Part shown: positions 21,031-56,200 of the stretch, piece by piece | How the letters are laid out: each line of letters starts with the position of its first letter | How positions within the stretch are numbered: position 1 is the stretch's first letter | Assembly (NCBI GenBank): GCA_030248295.1 | Contig: JASANH010001039.1 | Coordinates: 1,178,001-1,242,000 of the forward strand | Direction of reading: 5' to 3' | DNA: 64,000 nucleotides | Source: Mesodorylaimus sp. YZB2_4 | Taxonomy: Eukaryota > Nematoda > Enoplea > Dorylaimida > Dorylaimidae | The notes under the pieces: model-generated | The model's database searches: none | What the model saw: only the letters and a program-made list of their open reading frames with translations | Told to the model about the DNA's origin: nothing | Translations under genes and position numbers: made by a program

Positions 21031-24000
21031 ATGTTATGGAATTTCGTTTTGATTTTTTATTTTTCCAAAGTTTGGTCTGCCTTGGAACTGTCTACACCTG
21101 TGTATATGTGTGATAGGTAAGAGCTCGAGTGTGGTGCAAGGTTGGCCGAAAGTAAAACTATTTTTTTTCAATTCTAGCAAAATTTTTTGCCAAGGTAAGC
21201 GCGTCTGATGTTTTGTGAGTAGACTGAGGCTTATGATTTTTTTACAGGGCCTATTTATGACACTGCAGTCCGTCTACGCATTCACAACGATTCTGCTGAA
21301 TATGCTGGTATGACCTTAAAAAAGTCGCCAGGTAGGCTGTCGTACCATTTTTTATGCCAAGCAGTAGTGAATGGCTAGGCCTGGTCTGAAGAATCAGGAT
21401 GGCTTGGAGGTGGTTTCTCTACAGATGATGATTATTGTCAGAAGTGCACCCTTCGCGGATGTGGTGCATCCTGTATCGTGGCTGCTGCAAGCTATAGCTT
21501 AGTAACTGTGCTGGAAGAGTAATATTAGTTTTGAAGTGTAACACTGAAATTTGGCTGTCAAAAAGTTGACAGTCATTTGTGGTACCACCAAAAACCATAA
21601 TTGTTGACCAACACTACGTAGATCTGTCTGTCTTCTATTGCTTTATATGTTTCAGCTGAGACATTGGCTAATTTTGCTGCTCGGTTTCCGAATCCTCAAG
21701 AAGTATCTGGCGATGACATGAGACGATTTGTAGCCGATCATTTCTACAAACCTGGTACAAGGATTTTTTAAAATCTCCAGCTTAGGATTACAAGTATTTT
21801 CATGAAACTCGTATTCTTCTCTAGATCAAGAATTAAGCAATTGTAAACCGAGTGATTGGGTCTCTGATCCAAAATCCTTCGGCTTAATCAAGGATCCGAA
21901 TTATAAGGCGTGGTACGTAGAGCTGGTCGAATAGACCACAGATGCTTGGCCTATGACTTTTTTACTTGCTTCATTTGGTGTTTCTGCAGAGCGACAGATA
22001 TTATCTTTTTTTAGGGCAAAAGACTTGAAGAATATTTGGTCAGAACTATGCCGGCGAGTATGACCTATTATTGAGCCGTGAAACTTTTTTAATGGTCGTG
22101 TAATTTTTTTATTTTCAGATGGATAAAAGATTATTTGAAAAGTTTGACAGTTCTATCCTGATTTATGTACCCAACAATTTTATCGCTCCTGGTGGAATTT
22201 TCGACCACTTCTATTACTGGGATTCCTACTGGATAATCAAAGTGAGCCTTGTGTCATATGGTGCTTGACATACACTATGCGCTTTTGCGAATGAATTAGA
22301 ACATATATCTCGTTTGATGATATATTCTCCCTCAGTGACCAGTGCAAGCAACTGCTGTTGTTGGATGAAAAATTGGACTAATATGTAGCAGATCAAATAA
22401 TCTCAACATGTACAGCAGAATATTTAGTGCATATATCTTTATACACCTAATATCTATATATATTGAGTATATATATACTAGGTATATATATATATTAGGT
22501 ATATGTATATTAGGTATATATATTATGTATATAAATATATTAGGTATATGTTTATTAGGAATATATTTATTACAGAACCAAAGAAATAATTGTGTCCAAC
22601 GAATATTTTTCCACGTAACTGAAGAAATTAACAATTACTGGGTTTAAATGAACAATTACAAGGTATTCATGTACATAGTACATACTCATAAATATCCAGC
22701 ACTTATTCACATATACTCTCATATGTGTATAAATATATATATATATATATGACGTTTTGTATAAGTACGCACTGTATTATATATTTATTGATTTATTTAT
22801 ATGCGCTGTATCATTTATATGTATATATATATATAAGATAAAGTGCATATACAAAACTTCTTTACTCGCACAGTATATTTAGCAGTTGAATTCACAGTTT
22901 CATTTTTTTTATCACTTACTTCTCTATAGGTGCTGGTTTAGAGCTACAAATTTGCTTTTGCGAAAATGTGGTTCCCCTGAGCGCGTTCACACTCACACTC
23001 ACACGTTCATACTCACGCAACCTTCTCGCTTTAAAAAATTGTCTTATCGATGCTAACTTTTATTTCCATTCTTAGGGTCTCTTAGCGTCTCAAATGTACA
23101 ATACCACGAAAGGAATGATACGAAATTTTGCGTATCTGCTTGATCGGTAAGAGCATACTGATCAACTGCTTGAGCACTTCAGTACTGAAAATTAATAATT
23201 TTCTCAGCTTTGGATTCATTCCTAATGGAGGCCTCGTCTACTACCTTTAACGATCGCAGCCCCCCTTTTTTATACCAATGGTTTACGAATACTATTCTGA
23301 AACGCAAGACTTAAAATTTGCGACTGAAATGCTGCCTTACATGAAAAAAGAGCTTGACTTTTGGTTTAAGAATCGAACAGTCAATGTTCGAGTCGGCTTG
23401 AAGAATTATACAGTATATCGATATTGCACACAAAGTAGTACACCCAGACCTGAATCGTTTTCTGGAGATTATAGGTTGGGACAGCAGGTGGCAGCAGGTA
23501 AGCAGCATAAAAAGCTTTCAAGAAAATCGTTTGATTGGAATTCACATGTTGTAGATTTACGACCTCAGCTTTACAAAGATATAGCATCGGGGGCGGAATC
23601 TGGTATGGATTTTAGTAGTAGATTTTTCGGTAATAAAAAAGATATGATCACTATTCGAACAACTGATGTGTTGCCAGTCGATTTGAATGCCATTTTATGC
23701 TGGGGCAATGATATTTTGCATTTGTTATATATGGAACTGGGTAAGCTTATTTCTGTATCTTCAGGCTGATCGGGAGGCTATTGCGAGACTCACATGTTGG
23801 AACTCGCCTTGAACGAGGCATATGCTGAATGTTGCTTGTCTAGGAGCCCGTTTGGCAGTCAAACTTTTACTAGGACTAACATAACATAGACAGCAGTCAG
23901 CAGCAACAGTGAAAAAATTTTGTGGCAAAAGGAAAAGGCTAACATGACATGCTTCATTTTTTGTGCCTAAACTTTTGATGTCTCCTAAACGTACTCATCT

Positions 24001-26022
24001 AATTGTAAGTCGTTGCACCCATGACTCAATACAATGGCGTCCTCACAGATCACATAGATTCAATTTTAGTTTGGAAAAGCTAGGAGTAATTCGAATGCTC
24101 TCATCACTCCTAAAGGTACATCTCAGGCCGCATTTTATCCTGTTGGTCGGCAATTAGTAGTGTCAGGATTAGTATATATATTGGAGATGGGTTACTCTAA
24201 ATGGATTAGATTTAAGCCATAACTAATTTCAGGCAATCATGAAGAAGCGAAAAACTTTCTGCAAAAAAGAGAAGAATTTCGAGAAATGGTCCAAGCTGTA
24301 TTTTACAACGAGTCTGCTGGTAGCTGGTTCGATCGTGATTACAAGGCTGGGCTCCACATTCCGTATTTTTATGCCTCGAATGCTGTACCTTTATTTACTG
24401 GCTGCTATGATTCATCGGATACAAATAAGCCAAAAAGACTGCACGATTATATGAAAGTAAGCATCATTGAGAGATGAATTCGGATTCAGCAGGCAAATTT
24501 ACTGAAAAACTGTGTTTTTAGTCAGTTGGAGCATTGTCTTTTCCAATGGGCATCCCGAGCTCATTGGCGGCAACTGGCCAGCAGTGGGACTTGCCTAATG
24601 GTAAGTTCTCATAAACACTATAAACACTCATAAACACAGGATACTGTAAATTCTTATTCAATATAATCTTTCAGTTTTTCCTCCCAATAATTGTTCTCCA
24701 AGGTCCTATTTGATAAATTCTTCTTTTCCTCAAATGCAAACTTCTCTTTCGAGTGCAATTTTAAGTTTTTCAGGTATCACTAGAACATAATGATGATGAT
24801 GTAGGTTCCATGGGGTACCTAGAGAAATCAACTCGGCAGAATGTGGTTTGACCCACTCACTGGGCCCTGCCATGATGCTTTTTTGACGAAAAGGAGAAAA
24901 ATGCGGGACTACGTTATTTTTTAACCTTTCTCTTATGAATGCTTGCCCGAGCAAAAGATTTGTAAGCAACGTTAAATGTTTTTCAGGTTGGGCGCCTCAC
25001 AACCACATGATTATCGAAGGCTTTCGAAAATCTGGCCATCCAGAAATGCAAGAACTTGCTTTCGAGTTGGCAAAAAAATGGCTGAACGTTAACTACCTGG
25101 TTTACAAGAAAACTGGTCATATGTATGAAAAAGTATGTGAAATCTCGCCATTTAAAAACAACATGATTCTGGATGCTTAACGAATAGACCCTTATTAGTC
25201 CTGGATATTTGGCTGGCCATATATCCAGACAGTAATGCTGGCTGGTTACTATATAGCGACTGTTACACCCCAGCAGGTCAGTGGCGAACGCAAGACTGGC
25301 GGTCAATTAGCTTGCAGTGCCGTGTGCTCAGTTTTTTTTGTTGGCTAGACCCCAACGAGCCTGGAGAGTACTTCAGCTTACGATTAGAGTTTTTGTCCCA
25401 GACTTTTGCCTTTTCATACAATAGTCTCGATTACGTGTGCTGTATATTCCTTTTTGAACTGGTTTATAATTTTTTAGGGTGATTCCCTGTAAGTGCTTCT
25501 TTGTTATCACTTCTCCATTCATAGTTCTTTAGACAGTTTTGTTTACCGTGTCACAAATCCTTATTTGCACTACGTTAGGGGAAAGTAAGGATTTGCGATA
25601 TCTCACTGAGTATTAGATGTAATTGACACACAACTCACTTCCAATCACTTTTATCATAATTTCTCACCACTGGCTGCAAAGTAAGCACTGACTATTTTCA
25701 GTACAACGTGACCGACACCATATATCAGCCTGGCGGTGGGGGCAATTACGAGGTACAGATTGGGTTTGGGTGGACCAATGGCGCGGTACTGGATTTATTG
25801 AGAACGTATGGGTCTCGTCTCGTTGCTCCTGTCGATACTTTGACAGGCGGAGGAGGTTTCGGTTTGAGAAAAAGATGGCACTCCTTGGAGGGCCAGTTTA
25901 TCGCTGTTTTACAGCTGCTTTGCCTTGAGTTTCTAGTTTTTATATTAAGCAAAGTTTTCAGGCCTAATATATTGCATTATATAAATGTGTTTTTTGGGTG
26001 TGTAAAAGCACATGCTCTATGA
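21031..26022 (+). pseudogene. Treh: trehalase-like (GH37) copy 1, one in-frame stop
   Basis: Fourteen exons: 21031-21116, 21178-21194, 21248-21331, 21656-21754, 21825-21912, 22015-22057, 22119-22241, 23076-23146, 23208-23497, 23555-23740, 24233-24456, 24522-24600, 24987-25132, 25702-26022. Trehalase hydrolyses trehalose to two glucoses. The frame would give about 618 residues but meets TAA at 23248-23250 (codon 218), where copy 2 has CAG, just before the RSQPPFF motif. All splice sites and the rest of the frame are intact, so inactivation is recent, or the stop is an allele or an error. Visible motifs: signal peptide, PGGIFDHFYYWDSYW (canonical Arg replaced by Ile), [33 protein letters not shown], and PGGGGNY with Asn for Glu. 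The C-terminus has a long hydrophobic stretch. Intron 7 is TA-rich. Confidence 0.85.
22437..22830. repeat. TA-rich microsatellite region, trehalase 1 intron 7
   Basis: Interrupted TATATA and TAGGTATATATAT-type runs fill much of the intron. Similar tracts stand in introns of copies 2-4. Confidence 0.8.
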
Positions 26023-26344: not shown

Positions 26345-26350
26345 AATAAA
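26345..26350 (+). terminator. polyadenylation signal downstream of trehalase copy 1
   Basis: AATAAA about 320 bp past the stop, just before a dispersed repeat starts at 26397. Assignment to this gene is by position only. Confidence 0.4.
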
Positions 26351-28679: not shown

Positions 28680-30030
28680 TCACTTTTTGGCGATGGGGCC
28701 GCCCTTCTTCTTGGCCGATCCTCCCGTGTCGGCACTCGACAAGTCGGCGGCCATTCCAGCTTCGGCTCCCTGCTGAGCCATGTACACTGACATGCTGTTG
28801 ATAGTCTCGGTCAGTTTCTCGATTTGAGTATCGGCTTCTTTCTTCTGAGCGTTGCGTTTCTTGAGGAAGAAGGAGATGCCAATCGCAATGGCGATAATGA
28901 GCAGCACAAAAATGGCGCAGGCGGCGACGATGATGATGGTGGTTTGAGAGATGGCTTCGTCAAGGGCAGTGTGACCTTCGCATGGAGGGCACTTAAACGA
29001 TGGACAATTTTCGAACTTGGGTGGTGGATGCCCTTCCGTTCGCTTGATTTCGGAGGCCTCGCCGCACATGTTTCCACCGCACTCGACCTTGGTCGACTCC
29101 AATGGCCAGTGTTCGTCGCAGTCGTCATCGCAGTCTTTCGCGGTGCAGCTGCGATCGGAGGGTTTGCTCTTTTCGCACACGTCCCCGCTGATGTAGGTGC
29201 CAGTGTGATTCTTCCAGGCATCGAATACGCACGTGCTTGCCTCCTTGTCCGCGTAGCGACAGGCGCTTTTCCACCTGCACAAGTCGCGAACGGGCATCCT
29301 TGACCTTGGACATGACCTTGTCGAGGCTTGAACCCGAGTATTTCTCTTCGGGGACGCTGAACAGCCTGTCTTTGTGGCTAGCAAGCAGTTTGGCTTCTTG
29401 CATGGCGGACTCGAAGTTTCCATTCTTTCCTGACACATTGCGGGCGATGGTGTATGTGAAGACACCTGTGCTCCGAGCCTTGAAACCAGTCTCATTCGCA
29501 TGATCGTAGCTGTTGAATCCATTGTTCGTGAAGACCATAACGACGACTTTTGCTCGGTTGGCAGCGTCGGCGCTGAAGATGTGCTCGCGGATCGCAGCGA
29601 ATGTGCTAAGAGCATTGGTTCGGTAATCTTGCGCTCCCGCAGCGTCCAGAACAGCTTTTGTTGGTTTCCACGAACGCAGCGCAGTTTCGAACGCCGTTTG
29701 ATTTTCAGTCATTCGGAGTACCACTTTTTCGATGACGCCGATGGATTCGTTCAGCGATGTCATTTGGGAAGCGATTCCAAAGCGAGCTGCACTTTGACCA
29801 GGTTGGAACATTTCAGACAGTTTGATGTAGGCCTCATTGATGGCGGTGACTTCATTCTGGAGAACGGCTTCGTCGTTGCTTCCTTGCACACCGCCATGCG
29901 TCACAACCACAACCAGGTCCATGGCGGCAACGATTTTCTGCCCATCGATGATCATTGGCCCACTAAAGAGGGTAAACAGCACGATGATCATGGCATGCAT
30001 CTTAAACAAAGACCAGCTCGGTGATTTCAT
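28680..30030 (-). pseudogene. vWA-domain type I membrane protein, +1 frameshift
   Basis: A single-exon gene. From the ATG at 30030: a signal peptide (hydrophobic IIVLFTLFSG), then a vWA-like domain (DLVVVVTHGG, VVVMVFTNNGFNSYDHANET, GVFTYTIARNV, LDKVMSKVKDARSRL). Near 29280-29300 the frame must shift by one base to continue with a Cys-rich part (LCRWKSACRY, CTAKDCDDDCDEHWP, FKCPPC), a transmembrane helix (IIIVAACAIFVLLIIAIAIG) and a Lys-rich tail ending GGPIAKK. The order signal, vWA, Cys-rich module, membrane helix recalls adhesion receptors. The metal-site motif DxSxS is not seen (THGGV in its place). GC content is clearly above that of neighbours. No splice pair repairs the frame. It may be a pseudogene, a retrocopy, a sequence error, or less likely a programmed frameshift. 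Another in-frame ATG lies at 30051. Confidence 0.75.
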
Positions 30031-30390
30031 GTTCTTTTCGAGTCGGATCACGACTTTACACTTTCGACAGCGTTGAGCGAACAGCGATTCAGGGAAACAA
30101 CCGCACAGCGAGGAGACGGCAGAGATAATGATAGATGCTGGGTAAAAGTACTTACCAGCCTGAATCGACTTTACACTGTTTCAAATCAGCAAAAACACAG
30201 CCCGATAGTTTAGCCGAATTGGCGGGAATTCAAACATTTCAAACCTTCCCCCTGTTCTTTCCATCCTTTATTCCAATCAGCAGCAGTTCGAGCGCGTATC
30301 CCAAAGTGAGGTATCGGATTTTTAAATTCTTTCACTATTGCTTTCTAACGAAAAAAGTTTCATAATTGTCCTCGTTCATATTTGAAAAGT

Positions 30391-31471: not shown

Positions 31472-31489
31472 TCTCTTAAAACAATATAT

Positions 31490-32708: not shown

Positions 32709-35700
32709 ATGTGGTTTGTAAAATGGATAGTGTTGATCTTTTATTTTGGCAATATTTGGTCAGTTTCACCAGCATCGTCGAATTCGCCTGTTTATCTGTG
32801 TGACAGGTGAGATATTATTCTTAGATAATAATATGAAACATTACGTTTTTCCAGATTTTCAGCAAAATCTTTTGTCAAGGTAAGCGCGAATAATACTTTG
32901 CATTTTGGAAAAAAATATAATTTCTTTGCAGGTCCCATTTTCGAAACTATGTTTCGGCTGCGCATTCAAAACGAGTCGGTTGACTACTCCGGCATGACGT
33001 TGAAAAAATCAGCAGGTATGAGATTTGATCAATTTCAGCTGTTATGCAACCATGAACGTGGGGTACTCTTCCACTATACTTCCCGGCGCACGCGCACGGA
33101 TGGTTATTCTGCTAGCCGTGCCGTTAAAAACGAGATTCATTTTTAGGCTTGGCGCGCTTTTCTATATTGTGCCTGCAGCGAAAGCAGAGCATGGAGAAGA
33201 CGCGGCGCTGACAGGAAGAGTTTCTGGGTCAGAGGGCAGAGAGATTTAGACCACCCCAAACACACCCTCCCTATAAAGGTCTGAAGAGGAAGAGTTCATC
33301 AGTGCTAAAATGCTAACGATCACTGCAGCAGTTGTGGGCCATGACTGTACAGACAAGGGGTTCTGCACTCGCGCTGGGTTAATAACATACAGGACCACCA
33401 TACAAAGATCGCAAAAGCACTCTTATTATCTAGTCGCTTTAGCTCAGTCAGTGAAGGGCCCACGCTTTGTGACGCCCCGCTCAACACCTGGTCCGCGGGG
33501 TTCTTTCGAAAAGCTTCTGAAAATGTCTGCAACAAGCCCGAAACTGCGCGGCTAACAAGAAGTCACAAAGGAGGTGGCTTGGCTTTCTAAAACTGCAGCT
33601 GGCTTCCGGCCCTTGTGACGATGGTCTGATATATTTTTCGCGCTGCACCTATTGTAAGCATCAAACGCAGTGTAGCTATCTAAAGTGCAGATAATTTCAA
33701 TGATAAGGTGTCAGGCTCACGATCAGACACAGCCAGGTATATTTCGGGTGTCTGCATAGCGCACTACTCTGATTCGTAACAGTCCAAAGCCAGTGTCACA
33801 TGTGAGTCGTAAGCTAAGCTACCCCCCCCCCCCCTGGCGGTCGGTTTCGAATTTTTGTCCATTTTCTTAATGCAACATGCCGAAACACAATATGCAATGT
33901 GACACGCTACTAAAATTGAACCCCTAACTTTACTGTGCATACAGTACAGGTGATATTGTCAAAAACATGAAACAGCATTGTAGCACCTATAAAATGCAAG
34001 CAATGCAATCAAACGACTTCATATCCAATTATATTTTCAGCTGAAACATTGGGTGATTTTGCTGCTCAGTTTCCGAATCCTGAAGATGTATCAGGAGACG
34101 ATATGAGGCGGTTCATTTTTGATCATTTTCAGAAGCGTGGTATAGTATGAGTGTAGCATATGTGGCCTCAGAGCCCAATGTAATCAAAATTTTTTCAGAT
34201 CAAGAATTGATTGCCTGTAAACCAGGTGATTGGAACACTGAACCAGAGACCTTTGAATTAATCAAAGATCCTAAATATAAGGCATGGTGAGGACCAAAGC
34301 GCTGGCTACTTTTTTAGTGCTGCTTGTGCAGAAAGTACAAAAGATTTTTTAGGGCACATGATTTAAACAATATTTGGTTACAATTATGCCGGCAAGTGCG
34401 TCAATTTTGTTTCATGCATAGTCAAGAAGCTAGGAATTTTTTTTCAAGATGAGCAAGACAGTTTTGAAATATCCGGACAGGACAGTCTTGGTTTATGTGC
34501 CAAACGAGTTTGTCGTGCCAGGTGGAATATTTGATCACTACTATTACTGGGATACCTACTGGATAATCAAGGTGAGCTTACTTGCTAAAAACGTTAACAA
34601 TAACTTCACGTTCACACAACAAGCACAATCCTTATTTTACCGCTACATTGAGTTCTTCAAAGATGGTTGGGCATTTGTGTAGCTGAGGAGGACAGCAAAA
34701 ATTTTCTTAGCCCGGGGAGTAGGAAATGGCTGGCTTCAAGTCTTCACAATTCATAATTGCTGTATAGCTGTACTGACGATGAGTGAGGACAAAACAACGA
34801 TAACCAGATGTCTGCAGCAATGCTGCAGGTATATAAAAACACTGTACCAGACTTGGGTATCGCATGCAAATTATGTCACGCTTTTGCATGTATAACAGTC
34901 CTATTATTTAGCAAAATCACCCAGGTCAAATACTCAAGGAAAACTTTTGTGTTTTGCATTTTTGTTCGTAACCTTTAAATATATCTATTTGACTGATCAT
35001 CTCATAGACGGTGCTTTGAAAGTCAGATGTATCCAGATAACCAGAGGAAATAATTCCACCCAAGCGCTTTTATTCGTCATCGCTCTCTGTCAATCTTATG
35101 AATACTTATCTTTTTCGCCATTTTTAGGGTCTCTTGGCTTCTAAAATGTACAATACATCGAAAGGGATGATACACAATTTTGCATATCTTCTTGACCAGT
35201 AAGTGCAAAATGACTGGCTGTCCGCATATCAGAACTCTAAATCTGCTACTTTTTCAGCCTTGGCTTTATTCCTAATGGCGGCCTAGTCTACTACCTACAG
35301 CGATCACAGCCTCCTTTTTTTATACCCATGGTTTACGAATACTATACTGAGACGTTAGATTTGGACTTCGTGGCTGAAATGATGCCTTATATGATAAAAG
35401 AGCTTGACTTCTGGTTCAAGAATCGAACAGTGAATGTTCGAGTTGGTATTAAGAATTATACTGCGTACAGATATTGCACACCGAGTAATGCGCCTAATCC
35501 ATGGGATTATAATTTAGCACAGCAGTTAGCCCCGGGTAAACAGTAATATATTACCTTCCGAAAATCATTTGAAACCGCAATCACACAAATTATTTTTTTT
35601 AGAGTCGAGACCGAAGTTTTACCAAGATTCAGCTTCAGCAGCAGAATCTGGTATCGATTTTAGTGGTAGATTTTTTGGTAATCAGGAGGACAAAATAACT

Positions 35701-36041
35701 ATTCGAACAACCGACGTGCTACCAGTCGATCTAAATGCTTATTTATGCTGGGCCAATGATATTTTGCACATGCTCTACCTTGAATTAGGTGAGTTTGTTC
35801 TGGTATTTTTCACGGTAGCTGCGTAAATATACAAAAAATGATTACTTCAAAGGTTGTATGATACATAAATGCATATGTTCACGCAGACCTATAGGTGTAA
35901 TATATATATATATATATATGTATATGTATATATATATATGTATATATAAACAATGCCTTCTAGAATAGAGAGCTCAGCTCAAAATCAGGCTGGAGTAAAG
36001 ACATATATAGACATATATATATTTGTCTTGACTTCAGTCTG

Positions 36042-36072
<31 letters not shown>

Positions 36073-38105
36073 ATATATAATATTAGGTATATATTATATG
36101 CATATAAATATTAATATATCTATAGATTGCATTGCATATCTATATATTGCATAACTATATTAATATTTTTTATGTACATACATACATACGCATAGAAATA
36201 TTAATATAAAGTTCATTTTTTCATTCATACGTATAACAGCATGTATATTGCATCACCTGACTAATATATGACGCAAGTTATTACGCTCAACTCGGCTACA
36301 ATCTTGGCTGAGCAATGACAGAATTAAAAGTGCTAATGAAATGTAACACAGGAAATTTTAGGGAACCACGAAGAAGCGAAAAAGTTTTTGCAAAAACGAG
36401 AGGAGTCTAGAGAAATGCTTGAAACATTGTTCTATAACGAGTCGGCTGGAACTTGGTTTGATCGCGACTATAAAACAGGAGTTCATATTCCATATTTCTA
36501 TGCATCGAATGCTGTTCCTTTATTCACTGGATGCTACGATACACTGGATATGAGAAAGTCAAAAAGGTTGTACGACTATATGAAAGTGAGTAGGGATATA
36601 CTGTAAATGCTGCGCTAGTGGCGAAGCAGTTGCACTTGTTTTGTAGTCGGTTGGGGCATTGTCTTTTCCGATGGGTATTCCAAGCTCAATGGTGGACACT
36701 GGACAGCAGTGGGATTTGCCTAATGGTATGTTTCAGTATACTTCTGGCGGGTTGAAAACTCATAAATGCGTCTCGGTTAGGTTTGTAGAGGCTCGACTGA
36801 CAATCGATACTCTGCACGGAGCCGGCAGCTGGGAGCGTCACCCGTCAGGGTGACGGTTTAGCCATGTACTAGGTCGGAGGACTTAGTAGGCTGCCCTGGG
36901 TTTTTGGCGTGGTGCAAAAGCTCCACCGGTCACTCCCTCCAGTAATACGGACCCAGTCGTATTACATTGGTGCGTCGGCGGACCCGACCTTGGTCACCCC
37001 TCGTGGTATCCTGGTCTCGTCTCGCCTCGCCTCCGTCCTTCTGCAGTTGTCCTCGTTCGGGCCTGCCGGCGGACGAGAAGGGAGTGATGTAGAGGCTCGA
37101 CTGACAATCGATACTCTGCACGGAGCCGGCAGCTGGGAGCGTCACTCGTCAGGGTGACGTTTCAGCCATGTACTAGGTCGGAGGACTTAGTAGGCTGCCC
37201 TGGGTTTTTGGCGTGGTGCAAAAGCTCCACCGGTCACTCCCTCCAGTAATACGGACCCAGTCGTATTACAGGTTGTCGGTAGACGCGCCTTTAGGGAGCA
37301 AAGTGGGTAACTTCATCATGATATATGGGTGTCTAACAATGGGTGTTTTTTAGGCTGGGCACCGCATAACCACATGATTATCGAGGGTTTAAGGAAATCT
37401 GGCCATCCAGAAATGCAAAAACATGCGTTTGAATTGGCGAAAAAGTGGCTGAAGGTGAATTATCTGGTTTACAAGAAAACGGGCCATATGTATGAAAAGG
37501 TATGTAAAATATCACAAAAAAATATGGAGCAGCATGCTTTTCAGATTATTTTGTAGGTGGGACTCTTCAGGTTTTTTGGTGTATATGTATATTCACCCAG
37601 AAATATTCACGCATATAAGAAAAAAGATATGCGTGAATATGTATTCGCCTGTATTTGCATATATCCATGTATCTGCACATCTGTACATATATATATCTAT
37701 ATATTTATATATGCATAAATGTATATGTATATGTATATGTATGTACACTATATCAGAGGACTGATCAGCGGACTGATCGTGCTCTAATCACTCCCACTCA
37801 GTGGTAGTAGGTACTCTTGTTACCCAATTAACATCCGTTTTTAGTACAACGTGACTGACACCACATATCAGCCTGGCGGTGGAGGTGACTACCAGGTGCA
37901 GATCGGTTTTGGATGGACCAATGGTGCAGCACTCGATTTGTTGAGAACATACGGGGACCGTCTCGTTGCGCCTCCAGATAGTTTGACGAGTGGAGTAGGT
38001 TTGAGTTTGAGGAATGGGTGGAATTTCATGTCAGGACATTTTTTTGCAGCCTTACAACTCGTTTGTCTAAGTGTCATTCTTCACATGCGAAGCCATTGTT
38101 TTTGA
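32709..38105 (+). CDS. Treh: trehalase-like (GH37) copy 2, probable pseudo-enzyme
   Basis: Fourteen exons with intact frame, 598 residues: 32709-32806, 32863-32879, 32932-33015, 34041-34139, 34199-34286, 34353-34395, 34449-34571, 35128-35198, 35258-35535, 35603-35788, 36362-36585, 36647-36725, 37354-37499, 37845-38105. Kept motifs: signal peptide, [26 protein letters not shown] with the acid Asp, [11 protein letters not shown] and MYEK|YN. Lost or changed: PGGRF is PGGIF, PNGxR has Leu for Arg, TPRPES is APNPW with a four-residue deletion (exon 9 is 278 nt, not 290), and GGGGEY is GGGGDY. Three changes hit residues that contact the sugar in known trehalases, yet the frame is open over 14 exons, so a non-catalytic role or altered specificity is plausible. 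The C-terminus is short and hydrophobic. Confidence 0.9.
35899..36190. repeat. TA microsatellite with flanking inverted fragment, trehalase 2 intron 10
   Basis: Several (TA)n and TATG runs surround a fragment (about 35951-35990, TCTAGAATAGAGAGCTCAGC) that recurs inverted at about 41027-41082. CTGGAGTAAAGAC and GTCTTGACTTCAG form a local inverted pair. Confidence 0.75.
36785..36966 (+). repeat. 182 bp duplicated unit, copy a
   Basis: Starts GTAGAGGCTCGACTGACAAT and ends CAGTCGTATTACA. It is nearly identical to 37089-37270, with few differences (CACCCGTC/CACTCGTC; GACGGTTTAG/GACGTTTCAG). It contains the stem GTCACCC-GTCA-GGGTGAC. Both units lie in trehalase 2 intron 12. Confidence 0.85.
37089..37270 (+). 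repeat. 182 bp duplicated unit, copy b
   Basis: Second copy of the unit at 36785-36966, separated from it by 122 bp. The near identity shows a recent duplication inside the intron. Confidence 0.85.
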
Positions 38106-40061: not shown

Positions 40062-40240
40062 GTGGACGTCCATTTTTTAGAGGGGTCTAGGCGAGACGAA
40101 TGAAAAGTGGATAGGGGGAGGGGTAGCCAAAAAATAGCATTTTTTGGTGGACGTCCATTTTTAGGGGGGTCTAGGCGAAACGGACGAAAAGTGAATAGGG
40201 GGAGGGGTAGTCAAAAAATAGCATTTTTTGGTGGACGTCC
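40062..40240 (+). repeat. tandem repeat, about 85 bp unit, two copies plus a partial
   Basis: GTGGACGTCC recurs at 40062, 40147 and 40231. Each full unit continues with a GGGGTCTAGGCGA stretch, GATAGGGGGAGGGGTAG-like sequence and AAAAAATAGCATTTTTTG. Confidence 0.85.
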
Positions 40241-42610: not shown

Positions 42611-42721
42611 TCGTGAACTAACGGTCGCGCCGACGTCGCTGCGCCAACTTATCGTTAGATAATATATAAGAACTTGGAAAATTTTTCATTCTGGCAACGA
42701 TCTTGTGGCTGGTCCATGAAA

Positions 42722-45700
42722 ATGTGGGTTTTGAATTGGATGATTTTGGTTTTGTATTTTGGTCAAGTTTGGTCAGCTTTACCGACTCCACCACCCGCAC
42801 CTGTGTATATGTGTGATAGGTAAGTACATGCGTGGATGCAAATATGGCACTCAGTAAAGTATTTTCTTGATTTTCAGCAAAATTTTTTGTCAAGGTATAC
42901 GCTTGATGCTTTGAGAGTAAAATGAGTGTGACAATATTCTATCCAGGGCCAATTTTCGAAACTACTGTACGACTACGCATTCACAACGACTCGGCTGAAT
43001 ATGCTGATATGACGTTGCAAAAGTCTCCAGGTAGGAAGATCCCATTCATTTGCCCAGCTGGTGTGCGCTAAGACTGGCTTGGATCGGTCTGAAGTGAAGC
43101 TATAGCATGGATTGAAATGGGCTTCTGCCCCCGATGAATTATGCTGGAGGAAGAGAACCTTTGTAAATACTGCTTTCTCTGCCGTATCCACCCTAGCCAC
43201 ATAAAAATCTGGAGTTGTGGACAGTTGTGAAAATCCGATTTCCTGTAATGCAATAACAACATTAGCATTTTCAAGGGGCAGTCATACAACTGAGTCTGAT
43301 GGTAGACCGCACTGAAAAGGCATTGGCAGTTAGTAGAAACGGGGGCCTAAGCTGGACTGTCCACATCTTGATTAAAAGTACCAGTGTTAAAAGTTAAGAT
43401 TGATTAATCGATTGAAGATTAATTGATTGAAACTGCTGACTGAACCTGAGTGAGCCATTATCTCATGTCAAACCATTCCATGTCAGTACCATAATATCAT
43501 CATCTGTGTGTGGCCATAATATCACCAATATCATCTCTGTTTTCTATGATCCTGCAGTAGATTAAGGATATCTTTTCTTTGCTGTTTTAGAGTGTACCCC
43601 TGGCTCTTTGACTTGTAATTGTGAAAACATGAAATAACGTACTCGTGATTTTCACTGTGTGTGTGTTTACTCTACACTATTGGGCTTTTTTTAGAGGAGA
43701 CATTGGCTGATTTTGCTGCTCAGTTTCCTAATCCTCAAGAAATATCTGGCGATGATATGAGACGATTTCTGGCAGATCATTTCTACAAGCCCGGTAAAAA
43801 AGACAGGATCTTCTCTAGTTTGGCATAATTTTTTGAATTCACATCTTACTTTAGGTCAAGAATTAATTAGTTGTGAGCCAAGCGATTGGGTCTCTGATCC
43901 AAAATCATTCGAGCTGATTAAAGATCCAAAGTTTAAGGCATGGTAAGTTTGAGGCTATGTGGTTGGCCCCAAGCACTCTTCTTACTTCTTTTTGGTGCTT
44001 GTTTTTATACAAAGCACACATTTTTAGGGCGAAAGATTTAAATAATATTTGGTTAAAATTATGCCGACGAGTATGGCCTACTCATTTTTCTTGAAATTTC
44101 TAATTTTGTGACACGGTTCTTTTTTCAGATCAATGAAACAGTTTTGAAAAATTTTGACAGAACTTCGTTGATTTATGTGCCAAATAATTTCATCGCCCCT
44201 GGAGGAATTTTCGGTGAATATTATTACTGGGATACGTACTGGATTATTAAAGTATGTTGTAGGTCTTACATCGTGTACAGTACTGAGCATCTTGGGCAAA
44301 CCTTCGGCTGGTTTCACAATCACCCAGGACATGTGCTGGAGTTGGGAGGGTTGAGGCAGTGATGCAAGGTTGTAGGAACTACAATAGGGTATCGCAATAC
44401 TTAGGACATGGCCGGAATGGTTGTGGAACTAGCCTCTCAGCACTTAAGTTGGGTTATTACCGCCTGAACAACATCACTACAACAAAAACTGCGCCCTGAC
44501 TACACAGTATACCGATTAAGCACCTGTTTCATGGTCTCTGCTATTTTCGAACACACAGCTTTTAATAATCACAGGTGACAAATTCAAATTTTTTAAAGCA
44601 GCAATTGGAATAAACCAGTTTCCCACACATCGTGCTCACAAATGTGGTCTAGAGTACAAAAATGACCACTTATGTGAGTATCTGAAAGCTAGCAAGAGTT
44701 ATTCAAAGATTACGCGCTCATGAAAACACAAGCATAATATACCTTACTAGCTGTAAGGATGTGTACAGTATGATTATGTATCTAGTAGACGACATTATAG
44801 AAAAAATTATATTTTGATATTGTATTTTGTATATTGTGTATAGATTTATATATATATGTATTATATACTTCTTCCTCTTCTGGACTGTTAAATATAAAAA
44901 ATATATTATTATATATATCATTTTAATTTTAATACCTATATATGAGCATAATACATATATATATATATATATCCTGCTTATATAAATATATATAGTAGCT
45001 AAATATAGTATATCTACCAAATTTTGTATATTTATATATATATATATTCATAATTTGAATGAAAATATAATCTGCTGTATGTATAATGTGTATGGAGCAT
45101 GGAATTCTGGTGAGTAATGGCGCAATGGCGTGATGGTATGCAGAAACGCAAGTACAAATCTCGCCGAGGCGTCCCTTTCTCTCACGACCAGTATTTGCAA
45201 CAAACAGTTCTCTAATCTTTTGCCTGTTATTATATTAAGCAAAATCACTTTTCATACATGCATTAGCAAATATATTCCGTGATCATGTATTTTTCTTCTC
45301 CAGGGCCTTCTGGCGTCTCAAATGTACAATACGTCAAAAGCGATTATACAAAATTTTGCTTTTCTTCTTGACCAGTAAGTCGCACAAAGATCCCGTTTTA
45401 AGATTAAGGTGACGCGAAAAAATATTTTGATTGGTTTTTTACAGCCATGGCTTTATTCCTAATGGTGGCCGATTGTACTATATGAAAAGGTCGCAGCCAC
45501 CCTTTTTCATACCCATGGTTTACGAATACTACTCTGAGACGCTGGACTCAAATTTCGTGGCTGAAATGCTGCCTTATATGGAAAAAGAGCTTGACTTCTG
45601 GTTCAAGAATCGATCAGTTAATGTTCGAGTTGGTAATAAGGATTATACTGTGTACAGATATAACACACCAAGTAACACGCCCAGACCCGAATCGTATCAA

Positions 45701-48700
45701 GAGGATTATAAATTAGCGCAGCAGATAGACGAAAGTGAGTTTAAGAATATTTTTCATAAAATATGTATTATCATCGAGTCTGCATTTTTCAGATCTGCGA
45801 CCTCAAGTGTATAGAGATATAGCCTCGGCCGCAGAATCTGGTATGGATTTCAGTAGTCGATTTTTTGGGAATGGAAAAGATATGACTACTATTCAAACGA
45901 CTAACGTACTACCGGTCGACCTGAATGGTATATTGTGCTGGGCGCATGATATTTTGCATGTGTTATATATGGAATTGGGTACGTGGATTTATTTTTGGTT
46001 TGATTCTCAGGTTAAGTCATACACTGCAGATAGGAAGGACTGAACTTGTCAGGTTGTTAAGTTCTTCTTTTAAAAATTTTTATCTGCCGCCAGACCTATA
46101 AATATATATAAATGTATATATATGCATATATATATATATATAGACATGCCTAGGTACATTTATACATACAAATGCAACACCTGAATATGTATACATTCAA
46201 ATATGTATATACATTTATACATATATATACTGGATACACGTAATTCACAGCTATTCTTATAATGGTGGTATTGACTATAAATTAAAAAAACTGTTTCAGG
46301 CAGTTTGATTTTTACACCATGATATAAAAGTTTTATGAAGAATATCTTGAACCGAAAAAATGGAAAAGGCACCTTTCAGCCTTTAGTATGAATTTTACCT
46401 TTTGTTCATAAAACATCAATAATATCCACTCATTGTGCAGGAATGTTTTTGTTTTTATAATTATAACAAAGTCGCGATAGAAAAATAAATATTAAAAATC
46501 CATCAGAGTTCACGGAAAAAATACAGTATGCAGAAATGGATTAAAATATGTTTGTTTTTACGCTTCTGAAAATATATTCTATATGCGTTTAAGGATAAGA
46601 ATATGCTTAATGTACTACCACATCACCAAACGCTTATGCACACTCGAGGGTGACTAGACACAATTACACACGAATGTCAATGTCATTGCTTATAGATGTA
46701 GTTATATTATGCATATTTCAGGCAACCATGAAGAAGCAAAAAAGTTTCTGCAGAAAAGAGAGGAATTTCGTGAAATGGTGCAAGCAGTATTTTACAACGA
46801 GTCGGCTGGAACCTGGTTTGATCGTGATTATAAGTCTGGTTTACATAATCCACATTTCTTTGCCTCGAATGCTGTCCCTTTGTTCACTGGTTGCTATGAC
46901 TCGTCAGATTCGAGAAAGCCGAAAAGATTGTACGCCTATATGGAAGTAAGCCTGCCTTGGAGATGTTACGCTTGCGACTAACAGAAGTACTTGCATGTAT
47001 TTCAGTCAGTTGGAGCACTGTCATTTCCGATGGGCATTCCAACCTCGCTGACGGCAACCGGACAGCAGTGGGACTTGCCGAATGGTATGTCTGTGTAGCC
47101 CTCGTGCCTGGCTGACCTTGGTTAGTCAGCAGTGATAATGAATACTCCTTTTCTGGCTGGGAGACGTCAACCCCTCGGGTTGATATTTTAGCCGTAGGTA
47201 TAGTCGCGAGATTAGCCTGGTTTAATTGGAGTTTTAGTCCGGACGACTTTGCAAGGCCACATTCACCTCTCCGCCCGCCAGGCTTCGGTGTATCTGGCTG
47301 AGAATCTGGCCAATGTACTGCAGGGTATTTCACGCACATCACGTCGCGAACACATGCCTCATCACAGCGTGCATTATGCAGTATAGACAGTAATCACTGA
47401 CAAAGCTTGCTTGTGGGTGTACAGAGTAATGCGCACTCGTTTTATCACTGCTTGTGATTTCTTTCTAGGCTGGGCACCTCACAACCACATGATTATCGAA
47501 GGCTTTCGAAAATCTGGCCATCCACAAGTGCAAGAGCATGCTTTCGAGTTGGCGAAAAAGTGGCTGAACGTGAATTACTTGGTTTACAAGAAAACTGGTC
47601 ATATGTATGAAAAGGTATGTGAAATATTACATTTCCAAAAAAGCAAACTCTCTTTGTTCGTATTCTAAGCATGAGTTTTACTGTGTTAACCTTGCGACAC
47701 AGAGGATAGTGGAGGCAGGACGAGTAGAGAAAATTGTTAGACACTGGAAAATCACAGAAATATGGGGACAGTTAGGTCCGATGATCTACTTTGCAGTGTT
47801 AAATCATTGTGGCTACAATTTATTCTCTGCACAGGTTGGCGAGTTTGGTTCGATGGTACCCTGAATCCCAGGCTAGTAGAATTCGATACTGGTCATGTCA
47901 TGTCATGTCGTGTTATACTTTATCCATAGCCAAGCTTTATACAGCGCACTCGAGGGCCAAGGAATTCTGCCTAAGGAACTAGGGGGCTAAGGAAGTCGAG
48001 GGGCTGTCTGACATATCATTTTGTACCAAGGCGGGAGTCGAACTCTTCCCCGTAAGTGCGCACCTGCGCGACCCATCGTGGTCAATGTATTACGGTGGGT
48101 TAAAAAAGACAAGAGAGAAACTGGATGGTCTTTAGGAGGATACGATATGTTAGAATGCTGAAACAGTGACATAGATATGCCCGAAGTTCAAGCATGCAGA
48201 GCCCTGAAAGACTATGAAGGATCTTTTGCGAATAGCTGGTAAAGTTGAAGTAGTGTTTCCGAAAAGTGATGCTGAGACAAGGAATGTGAAATAGCAAAAA
48301 CTCTCCTGTCACAGTTATCCTCGTGTTAGAACAACTCTGAAGCTTTTATATACCCGTGTGCAACCCTTCGACTCGCGGGCGTGGGGTGGATGTGACTGTG
48401 CAAGATTTGTGGGACATCAGCTTCATTTAGAAGGAGGCGAGTCTATGATTACTTCTGCTGAAACATCAACCATACGGGTTGATCTTTAGGAGAGTTATAA
48501 TTCTCCCACCCACCATGGCCCAGACGAGTGCGAGGGCCCTTCGATAATTAAAGATTAGCGATCTTCGCTGTACTATTCTCTGACATCACTTTTCACCTCT
48601 TGCTCAGAGTCAAAAGTAATCACTGACGATTTCTTGTTTCAGTACAACGTAACCGACACCACGTACCAGCCAGGAGGTGGAGGTGAATACGGAGTACAGA

Positions 48701-48903
48701 TCGGGTTTGGATGGACAAATGGTGCGGCGCTTGATATACTGAGAACGTACGGGGCTCGTCTTGTTGCCCCTGCCGATAACCCAACTGGCGCAGCAGGTCT
48801 TGGTTTGAGAAATGGGCCATTTATTACGTCGAATCAACTATTCGCAGTCTTACAGCTGCTCTGCCTTAGTCTTGCGGTTTTTATGAAGGGCCAGACATTT
48901 TAA
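42722..48903 (+). CDS. Treh: trehalase-like (GH37) copy 3, membrane-anchored
   Basis: Fourteen exons, open frame of 602 residues: 42722-42819, 42878-42894, 42947-43030, 43695-43793, 43855-43942, 44028-44070, 44129-44251, 45304-45374, 45445-45734, 45793-45978, 46722-46945, 47006-47084, 47469-47614, 48643-48903. After a signal peptide comes CDSKIFCQGPIF, the usual GH37 start. Signature 1 at about residues 167-182 reads [15 protein letters not shown], with Ile 170 for the usual Arg. Then PNGGR, RSQPPFF (Arg 223), TPRPESY (Arg 288), ESGMDF (acid Asp 323), [11 protein letters not shown] (signature 2), MYEKYN (Glu 515) and PGGGGEY (Glu 531). Apart from the Arg-to-Ile change the active site looks complete. 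The last 25 residues are hydrophobic with a short polar tail, fitting a GPI signal or membrane anchor. SINE fragments sit in introns 10 and 13. Confidence 0.93.
44815..45050. repeat. TA-rich microsatellite region, trehalase 3 intron 7
   Basis: Interrupted TATATA runs. The long minus-strand frame of Tyr/Ile codons here is an artefact of the repeat. Confidence 0.8.
46098..46235. repeat. TA-rich microsatellite region, trehalase 3 intron 10
   Basis: Runs of TATATA and ATGTATATAC repeats, in the same intron number as the TA block of copy 2. Confidence 0.75.
46621..46655 (-). mobile_element. SINE fragment
   Basis: CATCACCAAACGCTTATGCA followed by CACTCGAGGGTGA is the inverse of the body of the SINE at 27027-27196. 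Confidence 0.6.
47891..48085 (-). mobile_element. tRNA-derived SINE, diverged copy
   Basis: On the minus strand it begins with a tRNA-like head (GGTCGCGCAGGTGCGCACTT, B-box-like GAGTTCGACTCCC), continues with CCCTCGAGTGCGC and ends in a tandem tail of ACATG units. Head, body and tail order match the SINE at 27027. It lies in trehalase 3 intron 13. Confidence 0.65.
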
Positions 48904-51570: not shown

Positions 51571-51580
51571 GGAATTTTCC
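51571..51580 (+). promoter_or_regulatory. GGAATTTTCC element upstream of trehalase copy 4
   Basis: The ten-base core is identical to that of copies 1-3 and lies 140 bp before the ATG. The flanking AGTTTTTCAC is not kept here. Confidence 0.5.
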
Positions 51581-51710
51581 ATGATGCACTTCCCAATATG
51601 TGCTGCGCTGGCGTGCGGGACCGACATATATGTTTTCACGAACAAAACTAACCGCTTTTTATCAACTTAGACCGAAGCCATTTTTTAGCGGATGACTGAT
51701 CCTTGATATA

Positions 51711-53265
51711 ATGATTCTAAGATTGATATTTTTCGTGATTTTATTTGGCCATGGGTCAAGCTTACTGCCATCATCCACACCTATTTATATGTGTGATAGG
51801 TAAGGGTCGTGAGTTATATTCTTGTAAAAAGTCAAAAAACAGATGTCAATTTTTAGTCAGATTTATTGTCAAGGTAAGTGCTAATTAGGCTTGGTATAAA
51901 GTGTACGTTTTTCTGACAAGTTTTGTCTAGGACCGATTTTGGAAACGGTAAATCGGTTAGGCATATACAATCGTTCGGCTCAATATGTCCATTTACTTTT
52001 GAAAAAATCGCAAGGTATGAATAAGAGGCTGCGTCGCTATGGAACTCTTAGTCATTCTGCCATTCTGTGCTCTAGTCAAGTTCATGTGCTCGATTCTGGA
52101 GAGACAGAAAGGAATGATTGGATTCTAGGCGGAACAGGATCCCAAAAAATAATTTTATCGACCCTCTTGTACAGTAGGTCAGGCATGGGTACCACGGGAG
52201 CAGAGCAGGTATGTAAGCAGTGGGCTGCATGGTCTGCTAATACCCATTACTGCTACTACATTTTCTGCTGTCTTGTCACATAGAAAAAAATTGTACACTG
52301 GTTTAAGTCAGGAGTACGGTTATTATAGATGTCTTTACCCTATCAGATATAATTCTTACTGAAGTAGATGATTTTTTGTCTGCGGTCTACTGAATTTGCA
52401 CTGAGGGACACACAGCTGCAATCACAAACAGTGATCATGGCCACAATACACAGCAGGTGGTTAGTAACGGTATAGAGGTATATGTAACCTTACTGTTGGC
52501 AGGCCACAGCGTGAGAAAGATCGTTCTTGGTCTCCCCTGACGTAGAGACGTTAACCCCTGGGGTTGCTGCTTCAGCCGCAGGTATAGTCGGAAGAATTGC
52601 CTGATTCAGTCGGAAATTTTGTCCCATCGACTTCGGTCAGCCTCATTCCTTCGCCTGCCAGACACAATTGCATGTGTTTGTATGCTAACCTGGTTCCTTC
52701 TTTTCAGCTGAGACACTCAGTGATTTTGCTGCTCAATTTCCCACTCCGCGAAATGCATCTGCAAAAGATGTTAGAAAGTTTTTGGCCAATCACTTTGATG
52801 AGCCTGGTTAGTGCTGATGTTTACTTACTCGCTGTGCTGTACTTTTCTGCGAGGGCTGATAGGGTGATGGGGTGGGGCTTGTAATCTACAGTGTCTTTGA
52901 GGTTCATTTACTGTCAAAAGTACGTTGTAAAACAGATTTATATGCCCCTTGTTTCAGGCGAAGAATTAACCAGCTGTACTCCTGGCGATTGGATTCCTGA
53001 GCCTAAAGCCTTCGACTTGATCGAGGATCAGAATTATAAGGCATGGTAAGTAATGGATCCGTCGATCAAAAACTGGAGAGCTGATTTCAGATCAAAATTC
53101 CAGTTTTGACGCGCTTTAGATTTTTGTTATTGGTTATGGGCTACAGGCAGAACTTTGGTGGTGTCTGGAGGTCTTATTGCATTTTACAATATCACTTTCA
53201 GAAGACAAGCTGCATAGATTTAGAATAGAATCAATTGCAAAGCAAGATATTCTATGGTACATAAC

Positions 53266-53298
<33 letters not shown>

Positions 53299-56200
53299 GC
53301 TTACTGTATATACCCGTATAGTGAAAAAGTCCGAAACATGTTTTATTTTTGTCCAGTACTGAACATATGCTCAGAGAATATATAACACAGCATATACCCT
53401 CAGTATCACCGAAGTATAAAGATATATATGCATATACTTAATGCATATATATATAAAATAATAATACACGCTTGTTTCATATTTACCCGGAATAATTCCT
53501 GCTGTTTTCCAGGGCGAAAGACCTGCACAGTATTTGGTTAAAGTTATGCCGACGGGTATGTAATCGTGTTTTGTTCAGGATGATTTTTAATAACATCGCT
53601 TTTTATTTGCCACTTTAGTTTAGAGACTCGGATGCAAAAGATTTTGCCAGAAATACTTTGCTCTATGTCCCTAATATCTTTATCGCTCCTGGTGGGCTTT
53701 TTCGAGAATATTATTATTGGGACACTTATTGGACAATAAAAGTACGTTGGCATAAGATATGCCATTTTAGTGTACCTGCTACAAGCATGTGCTTCTGCCG
53801 CAATTTAGCTGCTACAGTTTGCAAAAAAAATGTTGAGGGTCTCAGCAAGAAAAGCGGGCGCAGGATTTAATTAATTTTTGATGGCTAAGATATGAACTAA
53901 TTTTTGACTTAAGTGATGCCCTATCAATTGACTTCCAAAGCAAACTAAAGTTTTTGGCGTTTCAAGAATGCGAAATAGGCGACTTCATATTTCATATATG
54001 TACTGCACAGATATATATATATATATATATAGATAGATAGATATACATGTGTGAATATAATACATATACTTTATATGTAAGTATATGTGTATATATCGTG
54101 ACCTTTCATACAGTAAACTGTATAAAGGTCACGCTGGCTCATAAGTTTGCATCATCAGGCGTATTTGTATATTGTTGATCTAATTAGATGTTATAATTCG
54201 GTTATCTGTTATTACTATAACTCTGACTGATCCCAAGTATATCCTTAGGGTCTCCTGGTCTCACAAATGTATGATACTTCAAAGGCGATTATCGAAAATT
54301 TTGCATACCTTATTCGCTAGTAAGATTTTTAACCAGCCATTCATCTGATCCCCCTACAGTATTCCAATATATTCTAACAGCTATGGTTATATTCCTAACG
54401 GTGGTCGAACGTACTATCTGCATCGAACACAGCCACCCTTTTTCATACCTATGGTCTATGAATATTATACTCAAACCCGAGACTCGGAATTCTTAATCGA
54501 GATGCTGCCTTACATGAAAACAGAACTCAATTTTTGGTTCAATAATCGAACTGTAAGTGTCTATTCGGGTCAGAAGAATTATACTGTGTATCGATATTGT
54601 ACACTGAGTAACACACCCAGACCTGAAATGCATCGTGAAGATACTGAATTGGCGCTCAAGAAAAACCCAGGTGGGTACACTGTATTTTGATTTTTCGGAA
54701 AATTGTTAAAATTAAAACTAGGCTCAAATTTTGAAGATGAAAGACCCGCATTATACAGAGATATAGCCTCAGCAACAGAAGCTGGTATGGATTTTAGTGG
54801 TCGATTTTTTGGTAATCACAAAGACATGATAACTATTCGAACAACGGATGTGCTACCAGTCGACCTGAATGCTATTTTATGCTGGGCATATGATATTATG
54901 CACTTGCTGCATAAAGCTTTGGGTAAGCAATTTTTTAAGTAGGCGGGTTTTATCAAAAAAAATTTGCGTGAGCATTGAAGAATTGTACTGCATCAAAACT
55001 TTGAGAAGCTGAAATCTCTGGCTCTATGGCTGACCAGAGGATAGTTTAAGCCACATTTCAGACAAAATATTTTTTACTGTATTTGATGGCAAAATGGGTA
55101 ATGCAGTGAATGGGGTCCGTGTGCTAGAACTCACACTCAGCACTGCAGACTCGATATAGAATTACAGAGAGAGAGTTTGAGGAGAATCAAGAAGTTATTA
55201 AAATTTTTGTAAAGTTTGCCGCTTCAAACAGGGCTCATAAAAGCTGGAGGACCTTGGAAAAGTCAGGGAAAACAGGTATTTTGGAGCAAAAATCAGGGAG
55301 GTTATCTTCTGAGGCTCCAAATTTTGCGTCCCCGCCTTTTCTATGTGCCTGACAAATGCTGGAAGCCAGTGAATCAGGTTAAGTTAATTTTTTACTGCCA
55401 AGACACTGTGGAAGTATTTTGGGAAAAAATTAAATTTTTGGTTTGAGAACCTAGAAAAATCAGAAAACATTATTTTTCGCCCTTTTTATGAACCCTGATG
55501 AACTTGAAACTAACTTTTTAGTTTGAATTCACTGTACTTTAGGGAATCTCAGTGAAGCAGACAAATATTTAGAAAAACGGCAAGAACTTCGGGAAATGCT
55601 TAAAGCATTATTCTATAATGAATCCTCTGGTACATGGTTCGACCGTGATTACAAATCCGGCTTACATATATCCAACTTTTATCCTTCGAATGCCGTACCA
55701 TTATTCACTGGCTGCTATGATCCATTGGACAAAAAGAAATCGAGTAGATTGTACGATTATATGGAAGTAAGCCTGGTGTAGGATGTTAGGAAACTAAAAT
55801 TTTTTGCTTTGTTCGGATACCTTTGTGAACGAAGCTAAGCCAACAGTGACCAGCCCACTGATCTGGGCCAGAAGCTGTTAATCCGAATTTCAAATTCCCG
55901 CCAAAATAAGCTCTTTTCTGTTGGCTGAATCACTGTATCCTTCAAGGCGCAATTATAGTCGACAAAATTTCTACTCCTACCCCTAGGGTAGGTGTAATGG
56001 CCATATACTTAAGCGTATGCTATTACTCCTACCCTAGGGGTAGGTGTAGAAATTTTGTCGACTATAAATGCGCCTTCAAGCCCACCCATCTTGACTATGG
56101 GTTCCCTAAATATAGTCGGATTAATCAGCCTAGAGGCACTACGATGCACGGCGCCAGTCTGGCGGGGAGGCCCATGGCCGCGCGAAACACAAAACTAGTA

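What the first reader, a model, noticed from the sequence alone, without database searches (positions are those of the whole stretch)
22119..53741. All readable trehalase copies lack the essential Arg of the PGGRF signature
In exon 7 the four copies read PGGIF, PGGIF, PGGIF and PGGLF. In copy 3 the changed residue is number 170. Spodoptera frugiperda trehalase (from memory) needs Arg169, Arg222 and Arg287 besides Asp322 and Glu520. Copy 3 keeps the matching Arg 223, Arg 288, Asp 323 and Glu 515, a constant one-residue offset for four positions, so the alignment is firm. Losing the same Arg across the array while keeping the acid and base points to a subfamily with changed substrate, weak activity or a binding role.
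Basis: partly seen in the sequence, partly recalled or inferred. Interest (0 to 1): 0.82.

Follow-up and report, generated by a model that had tools for sequence, protein, structure and literature searches.

The report
Nematode trehalase copies missing key arginine
In an unidentified roundworm, four of five side-by-side copies of a sugar-splitting (trehalase) gene have lost an arginine that active trehalases need, yet at least two look like intact, selected proteins, so they may have stopped cutting trehalose and taken on another role.

Summary
Joined 14-exon gene models give PGGIF, PGGIF, PGGIF and PGGLF in the four complete copies in the window. The changed residue aligns with E. coli TreA Arg152, which is Arg in 95 of 95 distinct bacterial GH37 genes examined, in the solved-structure sequences shown, and in the three other GH37 genes found in this genome. 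The catalytic acid (Ec Asp312) and base (Ec Glu496) are kept in all four.

The claim "lost across the array" is wrong. A fifth tandem copy begins at the window's edge, and its exon 7, 2.4 kb beyond the edge, reads PGGRF. Codons are CGT (copy 5), CTT (copy 4), ATT (copies 1, 3), ATA (copy 2). The loss most likely arose inside the array, once or twice (unresolved). Copy 1 has an in-frame stop; copy 2 has lost further conserved residues. Copies 3 and 4 are intact, with dN/dS about 0.13-0.17. The genome looks like a nematode's, not an insect's.

Best reading: secreted, probably membrane-anchored GH37 proteins that lost most trehalose hydrolysis but kept the fold and most of the pocket, beside an Arg-bearing paralogue that likely still works. 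No activity data exist, so a new substrate or residual activity stays open.

The parts
21031..26022 (+). Copy 1, 14-exon GH37 gene, PGGIF; in-frame TAA at 23248-23250 in exon 9; Ec R199->L, E511->N
   Evidence: joined exons, all GT-AG; residues by alignment; stop
22197..22199 (+). ATT (Ile) at the PGGRF arginine position, copy 1
32709..38105 (+). Copy 2, 14-exon GH37 gene, open frame, PGGIF; Ec R199->L, R277->N, E279 deleted, E511->D
34527..34529 (+). ATA (Ile) at the arginine position, copy 2
42716..48903 (+). Copy 3, 14-exon GH37 gene, open frame of 604 aa, PGGIF; signal-like N-terminus and short hydrophobic C-terminus
44207..44209 (+). ATT (Ile) at the arginine position, copy 3 (residue 172 from the first ATG)
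51711..59000 (+). Copy 4, 14-exon GH37 gene, open frame of 617 aa, PGGLF; C-terminal hydrophobic stretch with a 19-aa tail
53697..53699 (+). CTT (Leu) at the arginine position, copy 4
62811..63117 (+). Copy 5, exons 1-3; the gene continues past the window to C5:1247835 and keeps Arg (CGT) in exon 7

Best explanation
A five-gene tandem array of secreted, probably membrane-anchored GH37 proteins in a nematode. The founding array gene probably still had the PGGRF arginine, as copy 5 does, besides other array-wide changes (Ec W311->Met/Ile, W317->Phe). In copies 1-4 this arginine is replaced by Leu (copy 4) or Ile (copies 1-3). Shown: the replacement, retention of the general acid and base, intact frames and splice sites in copies 3 and 4, and purifying selection. 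Inferred: losing the substrate-contacting arginine removes most trehalose hydrolysis; copies 3 and 4 are kept as folded proteins whose pocket may still bind a glucose- or trehalose-like ligand (a pseudo-trehalase); copy 5 and the three dispersed GH37 genes supply the enzyme; copies 1 and 2 are drifting further from the enzyme, copy 1 already with a stop.
For: Arg at this position in 95 of 95 distinct bacterial genes, in the solved-structure sequences whose alignments I saw (7e9u, 7e9x, 5z66, 2jf4, 5m4a), in the three other GH37 genes and copy 5. Of 77 columns invariant in E. coli, three other bacteria, three conventional paralogues and copy 5, copy 3 differs at two only: Ec K61 and R152. Of 57 positions identical in the 96 bacterial loci, copy 3 differs from copy 5 only at R152 and, where both had already changed, at E345. 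Three Arg are essential in Spodoptera trehalase (PMC4731906 passages), and three conserved Arg are docked trehalose contacts in Lissorhoptrus (PMC9604388 passages); that these include the PGGRF Arg I infer from their spacing. dN/dS is well below 1 on all five terminal branches (two-ratio fits; each rejects omega = 1 by 2dlnL 52-88).
Against: No activity, expression or structure data. Arg-less copies keep acid, base and most conserved residues, so some activity may remain. The branch to copies 1+2 has omega 1.75 (5.6 in the free-ratio fit), not distinguishable from 1, and copy 1 has a stop, which suits decay for part of the array. Branch omega is averaged over the whole protein. Copy 5 has the lowest omega (0.087 against 0.163 for the rest, 2dlnL 7.17), so the Arg-less copies are somewhat less constrained.
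Confidence: 0.55

Rival explanations
1. Active glycosidase with a changed substrate: the pocket was re-tuned (Arg lost, Trp next to the acid changed to Met or Ile) for a disaccharide or glucoside other than trehalose.
For: Acid and base kept in all four copies, few other invariant columns changed in copies 3 and 4; purifying selection; array-wide changes Ec W311M/I and W317F are also in Arg-bearing copy 5.
Against: No other residue was seen here in 95 distinct bacterial genes (no eukaryote collection was at hand beyond this genome); Ec W311 is already Cys in 7e9u and His in 5m4a, so that change alone says little; the Arg-less copies do not share one new residue (Ile or Leu).
Confidence: 0.2
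2. Ordinary decay of surplus tandem duplicates: the Arg went because nothing kept it.
For: Copy 1 has a TAA stop; copy 2 lost Ec R199, R277, E279 and E511 besides; omega about 1.75 (not distinguishable from 1) on the stem of copies 1+2.
Against: Omega 0.125-0.174 on the branches to copies 1-4, each rejecting 1; frames and splice sites intact in copies 3 and 4, with two and six of 77 invariant columns changed; all four copies changed at one conserved signature residue.
Confidence: 0.15
3. Still a normal trehalase: in this subfamily the Arg is dispensable or another residue stands in.
For: The other compared catalytic and binding residues are kept in copies 3 and 4 apart from Ec W311 and, in copy 4, S309; copy 4 keeps the next Arg (LFRE), two residues on.
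Against: Site-directed work on the insect enzyme found three Arg essential (PMC4731906 passages); copies 1-3 lack the next Arg too (IFDH, IFGE).
Confidence: 0.1

Closest known systems
GH37 alpha,alpha-trehalase (Pfam PF01204), e.g. E. coli TreA/Tre37A and Spodoptera frugiperda trehalase
   Same: Pfam GH37 matches, signature 2 (QWDxPNGWAP), Ec R205, D312, E496 in all four copies; R277 in three of four; GGGGEY in copies 3 and 4
   Different: Arg of signature 1 (PGGRF) is Ile/Ile/Ile/Leu; Ec W311 is Met or Ile; copies 1 and 2 lack the Glu of GGGGEY
Trehalase 7e9u (best solved-structure hit, E 2.4e-108; that it is from Arabidopsis is recalled)
   Same: Aligned to residues 58-555 of copy 3; also lacks Trp at the Ec W311 position (Cys)
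   Different: Keeps the Arg (PGSRF)
The three dispersed GH37 genes of the same genome (contigs C4, C239, C246)
   Same: 39.5-45.9% identity to the array proteins over the pieces joined
   Different: All keep PGGRF and Trp at the Ec W311 position. C246 and C239 meet a stop soon after the GH37 domain in the frame read, with no hydrophobic tail seen; a further exon is not excluded, and the tail of C4 was not looked at
Pseudoenzymes in general (review PMC10211241, seen only as a search listing with the start of its abstract)
   Same: Paralogue kept after loss of a conserved catalytic-site residue
   Different: Acid and base are kept here, so inactivity is inferred, not evident

Membership tests
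GH37 protein family (PF01204) | Match to the Pfam model above its cut-off | tested here: met
   Exons of all five array copies are listed over the 21-bit cut-off
GH37 protein family (PF01204) | Signature 2, QWDxPx[G/A]W[P/A/S]P (pattern as printed in PMC6384254) | tested here: met
   QWD[LM]PNGWAP in all five copies
Functional trehalase | Signature 1, PGGRFxExYxWDxY (pattern as printed in PMC6384254) | tested here: not met
   Arg replaced in 4 of 4 window copies; met in copy 5
Functional trehalase | General acid Asp and base Glu (Ec D312, E496) | tested here: met
   D and E in all five copies. The papers read differ on the base: Glu496 (PMC9604388), Glu469 (PMC7411730)
Functional trehalase | Three essential Arg (Sf R169, R222, R287) | tested here: not met
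   First lost in copies 1-4; second kept in all; third kept in copies 1, 3, 4, 5 and lost in copy 2
Functional trehalase | Glycine-rich GGGGEY | tested here: inconclusive
   Met in copies 3, 4, 5; GGGGNY in copy 1, GGGGDY in copy 2
Functional trehalase | Hydrolysis of trehalose | not testable with these tools
   No assay
Pseudogene array | Broken frames or loss of constraint | tested here: not met
   A broken frame in copy 1 only (one stop); copies 2-5 open; omega far below 1 on all five terminal branches; the stem of copies 1+2 is not below 1

The most novel reading that the evidence does not exclude
The same essential arginine was lost twice independently in neighbouring tandem copies (to Leu in copy 4, to Ile in the ancestor of copies 1-3), together with the conserved Lys of the DSK motif (Ec K61), while copy 5 kept both: repeated selection turned secreted trehalases into sugar-binding or regulatory pseudo-enzymes beside an active sister.
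Probability: 0.25. Interest if true: 0.65.

Novelty: new variant of a known kind. Interest (0 to 1): 0.45.

Why it matters
The five genes are a natural mutant series (Arg, Leu, Ile, Ile, Ile) on closely related scaffolds (62-77% identical proteins). They could show whether GH37 proteins can be kept for something other than cutting trehalose, and what the signature arginine does. They also warn that a GH37 or 'trehalase' label in nematode genomes, where secreted trehalases matter biologically (PMC12309661), need not mean trehalase activity.

Tried and rejected
Single versus double loss: tested user trees with the site left out (six trees, three). The single-loss tree (copy 5 outside copies 1-4) gets AU p 0.007 (WAG+G4), 0.009 (Q.pfam+G4), 0.30 (LG+C20+G4) and 0.054 (codon GY); with the Lys column left out as well, 0.004 (WAG+G4) and 0.30 (LG+C20+G4). 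The signal comes mainly from exons 8-14; exons 1-7, where the Arg lies, do not resolve it. Left open.

Regain of Arg in copy 5 costs no more nucleotide changes than two losses on the favoured tree (my count from the codons); not excluded.

Sequencing or assembly error at the site: rejected, because four diverged copies carry three different codons.

An insect source: rejected. 133 cuticle-collagen PF01484 matches and 0 PF00379 matches (no control genome rang for either, and that the first domain marks nematodes and the second arthropods is recalled). Against a typical nematode: no exact copy of the SL1 leader, with up to three mismatches one match against two for the reversed control, and no hit for Rfam SL1, whose search rang in no control either. 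The clade is unknown.

I did not send one.

Full report
What is there. Tblastn with three bacterial trehalases, and a comparison of the window's own stop-to-stop peptides with each other, found repeated exons of GH37 (trehalase family) genes on the + strand. Using splice sites, I joined four complete 14-exon genes: copy 1 (21031-26022), copy 2 (32709-38105), copy 3 (42716-48903), copy 4 (51711-59000), and exons 1-3 of copy 5 (62811-63117). Every junction is GT-AG and the phases agree between copies. Copies 2-4 are open from ATG to stop; copy 1 has one in-frame stop in exon 9 (TAA). All start with a hydrophobic, signal-like stretch and the five complete proteins end with a hydrophobic stretch, followed by 4-7 residues in copies 2, 3 and 5 (GPI-like) and by 19-24 in copies 1 and 4 (hydropathy only; the anchor type is inference).

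The arginine. Exon 7 gives PGGIF, PGGIF, PGGIF and PGGLF. Aligned with E. coli TreA (fetched), the position is R152; the copies keep Ec R205, D312 and E496 in 4 of 4 and R277 in 3 of 4. Passages of PMC4731906 state that Spodoptera R169, R222 and R287 are essential and D322 and E520 are acid and base (Silva et al., not read). Passages of PMC9604388 list R179, R232 and R297 of a weevil trehalase among docked trehalose contacts. I hold neither sequence; that R169 and R179 are the PGGRF arginine is inferred from the constant spacing. Papers differ on the E. coli base (Glu496 in PMC9604388, Glu469 in PMC7411730); motif 5, EK[Y/F]D, of PMC10969515 (passages) fits Glu496.

How unusual. In 80 of 80 genome-contig loci the residue is Arg. 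These are the best 80 of 593 confirmed relatives of an alignment headed by a Spirosoma protein, mostly Bacteroidota by title; the scan patterns ExYYWD[ST]Y and QWDxPNGW do not contain the Arg. A first regex count placed 73 of the 80, all Arg; the other seven were placed by alignment. A search of 200 genomes of the phylum of a Paraburkholderia listed 26 matches; 16 cover most of the family model and all 16 have Arg. The other ten (seven over the cut-off, three below) start past model position 250, do not cover the site and were not counted. One gene is in both sets (L095 = L121), so the sum is 95 distinct genes. These are prokaryotes only; no collection of eukaryote genomes was on hand. The five solved-structure sequences shown (7e9u, 7e9x, 5z66, 2jf4, 5m4a) have Arg.

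The rest of the array and genome. The window's own genome is held (145 Mb, 1067 contigs; window = C5:1178001-1242000), and the 38 PF01204 matches listed fall in eight genes: the five-gene array and one gene each on C4, C239 and C246 (best candidates only, so a lower bound). I fetched these. Copy 5 runs to C5:1247835 with the same 14 exons, all GT-AG, and reads PGGRF. The three dispersed genes read PGGRF. The next 10 kb (L013) gave no hit to copy 4 or the Spirosoma protein. So 'lost across the array' must be narrowed to 'lost in four of five copies'.

Codons and order. Copy 5 CGT, copy 4 CTT, copies 1 and 3 ATT, copy 2 ATA; dispersed genes CGT, CGA, CGG. CGT to CTT to ATT is a path of single steps through Leu. 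The best tree is ((1,2),3) with (4,5) (support of the last pair 80/81), which needs two losses, or one loss and a regain. The single-loss tree is rejected by two simple protein models, borderline by a codon model, and not rejected by LG+C20+G4; the part of the gene that holds the Arg does not resolve it. I leave this open.

Specificity. Of 77 columns invariant in eight reference sequences (copy 5 being one of them), two are changed in all four Arg-less copies: R152 and the Lys of the DSK motif (Ec K61). Copy 3 is changed at these two alone, copy 4 at six, copy 1 at seven, copy 2 at thirteen. Without copy 5 among the references there are 87 such columns, five of which (Ec Q52, F63, W311, W317, W380) are changed in all five copies and so do not track the Arg. 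The Lys is K in 95 of 96 bacterial loci. W311 is Cys in 7e9u and His in 5m4a.

Selection. A codon model on 589 shared codons gives omega 0.148 overall. Two-ratio fits give 0.153, 0.162, 0.125, 0.174 and 0.087 for copies 1-5, each rejecting 1. The stem of copies 1+2 gives 1.75 (2dlnL 4.84 against one ratio), not distinguishable from 1; copy 5 is slower than the rest (2dlnL 7.17). This was my own likelihood code on one fixed tree without outgroups; the tests are nominal and not corrected for number.

Organism. 133 cuticle-collagen (PF01484) matches and no arthropod-type cuticle (PF00379) match point to a nematode (the meaning of these domains is recalled); the SL1 tests were negative, so the clade is not known.

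Mechanism. In GH37 the first signature arginine lies in the pocket; swapping it for an aliphatic side chain while acid and base stay should cut trehalose turnover strongly (inference). Constraint on copies 3 and 4 says that the protein is still used. I therefore favour secreted, anchored pseudo-trehalases beside an Arg-bearing sister, with changed substrate as the chief rival.

In print. In the listings of seven searches (open-licence library only, listing 20 of 325) and in the passages that I opened I saw nothing on GH37 proteins lacking this Arg. I opened seven papers (PMC6384254, PMC7411730, PMC9604388, PMC10969515, PMC4731906, PMC7263609, PMC12309661): passages of each, one section of the last, no whole text.

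Noticed in passing
L012 311-7335 (C5:1240811-1247835): Copy 5 of the array keeps PGGRF and the DSK lysine, and has the lowest dN/dS of the five.
   Followed up: yes
exon 3 of copies 1-4 (e.g. copy 3 residue 57): The conserved Lys of the DSK motif (Ec K61) is lost in exactly the copies that lost the Arg.
   Followed up: partly
start of exon 9 in each copy (e.g. 45445-45500): By eye, the region homologous to a published nematode trehalase peptide that plants sense (PMC12309661, one section and passages read); that paper also calls a secreted cyst-nematode trehalase an effector candidate.
   Followed up: no
28680-30180, - strand: Two long overlapping open frames at about 49% GC between copies 1 and 2; one has a signal-like stretch, the other a membrane-like stretch near its end; no Pfam match at E 0.01. 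Resembles a von Willebrand A-type domain by eye (recall, not tested).
   Followed up: partly
12026-12574, - strand: Open frame matching diacylglycerol acyltransferase (DAGAT, E 1.9e-51) upstream of the array.
   Followed up: no
window, among 43 open frames scanned: Two open frames match Trypsin (best E 4.4e-18); the table does not say which two.
   Followed up: no
36784-37269: A direct repeat with 304-base spacing, 91-100% alike in the translated pieces, inside intron 12 of copy 2.
   Followed up: no
40062-40240: Tandem repeat of period 84, 2.1 copies, 92% matches.
   Followed up: no
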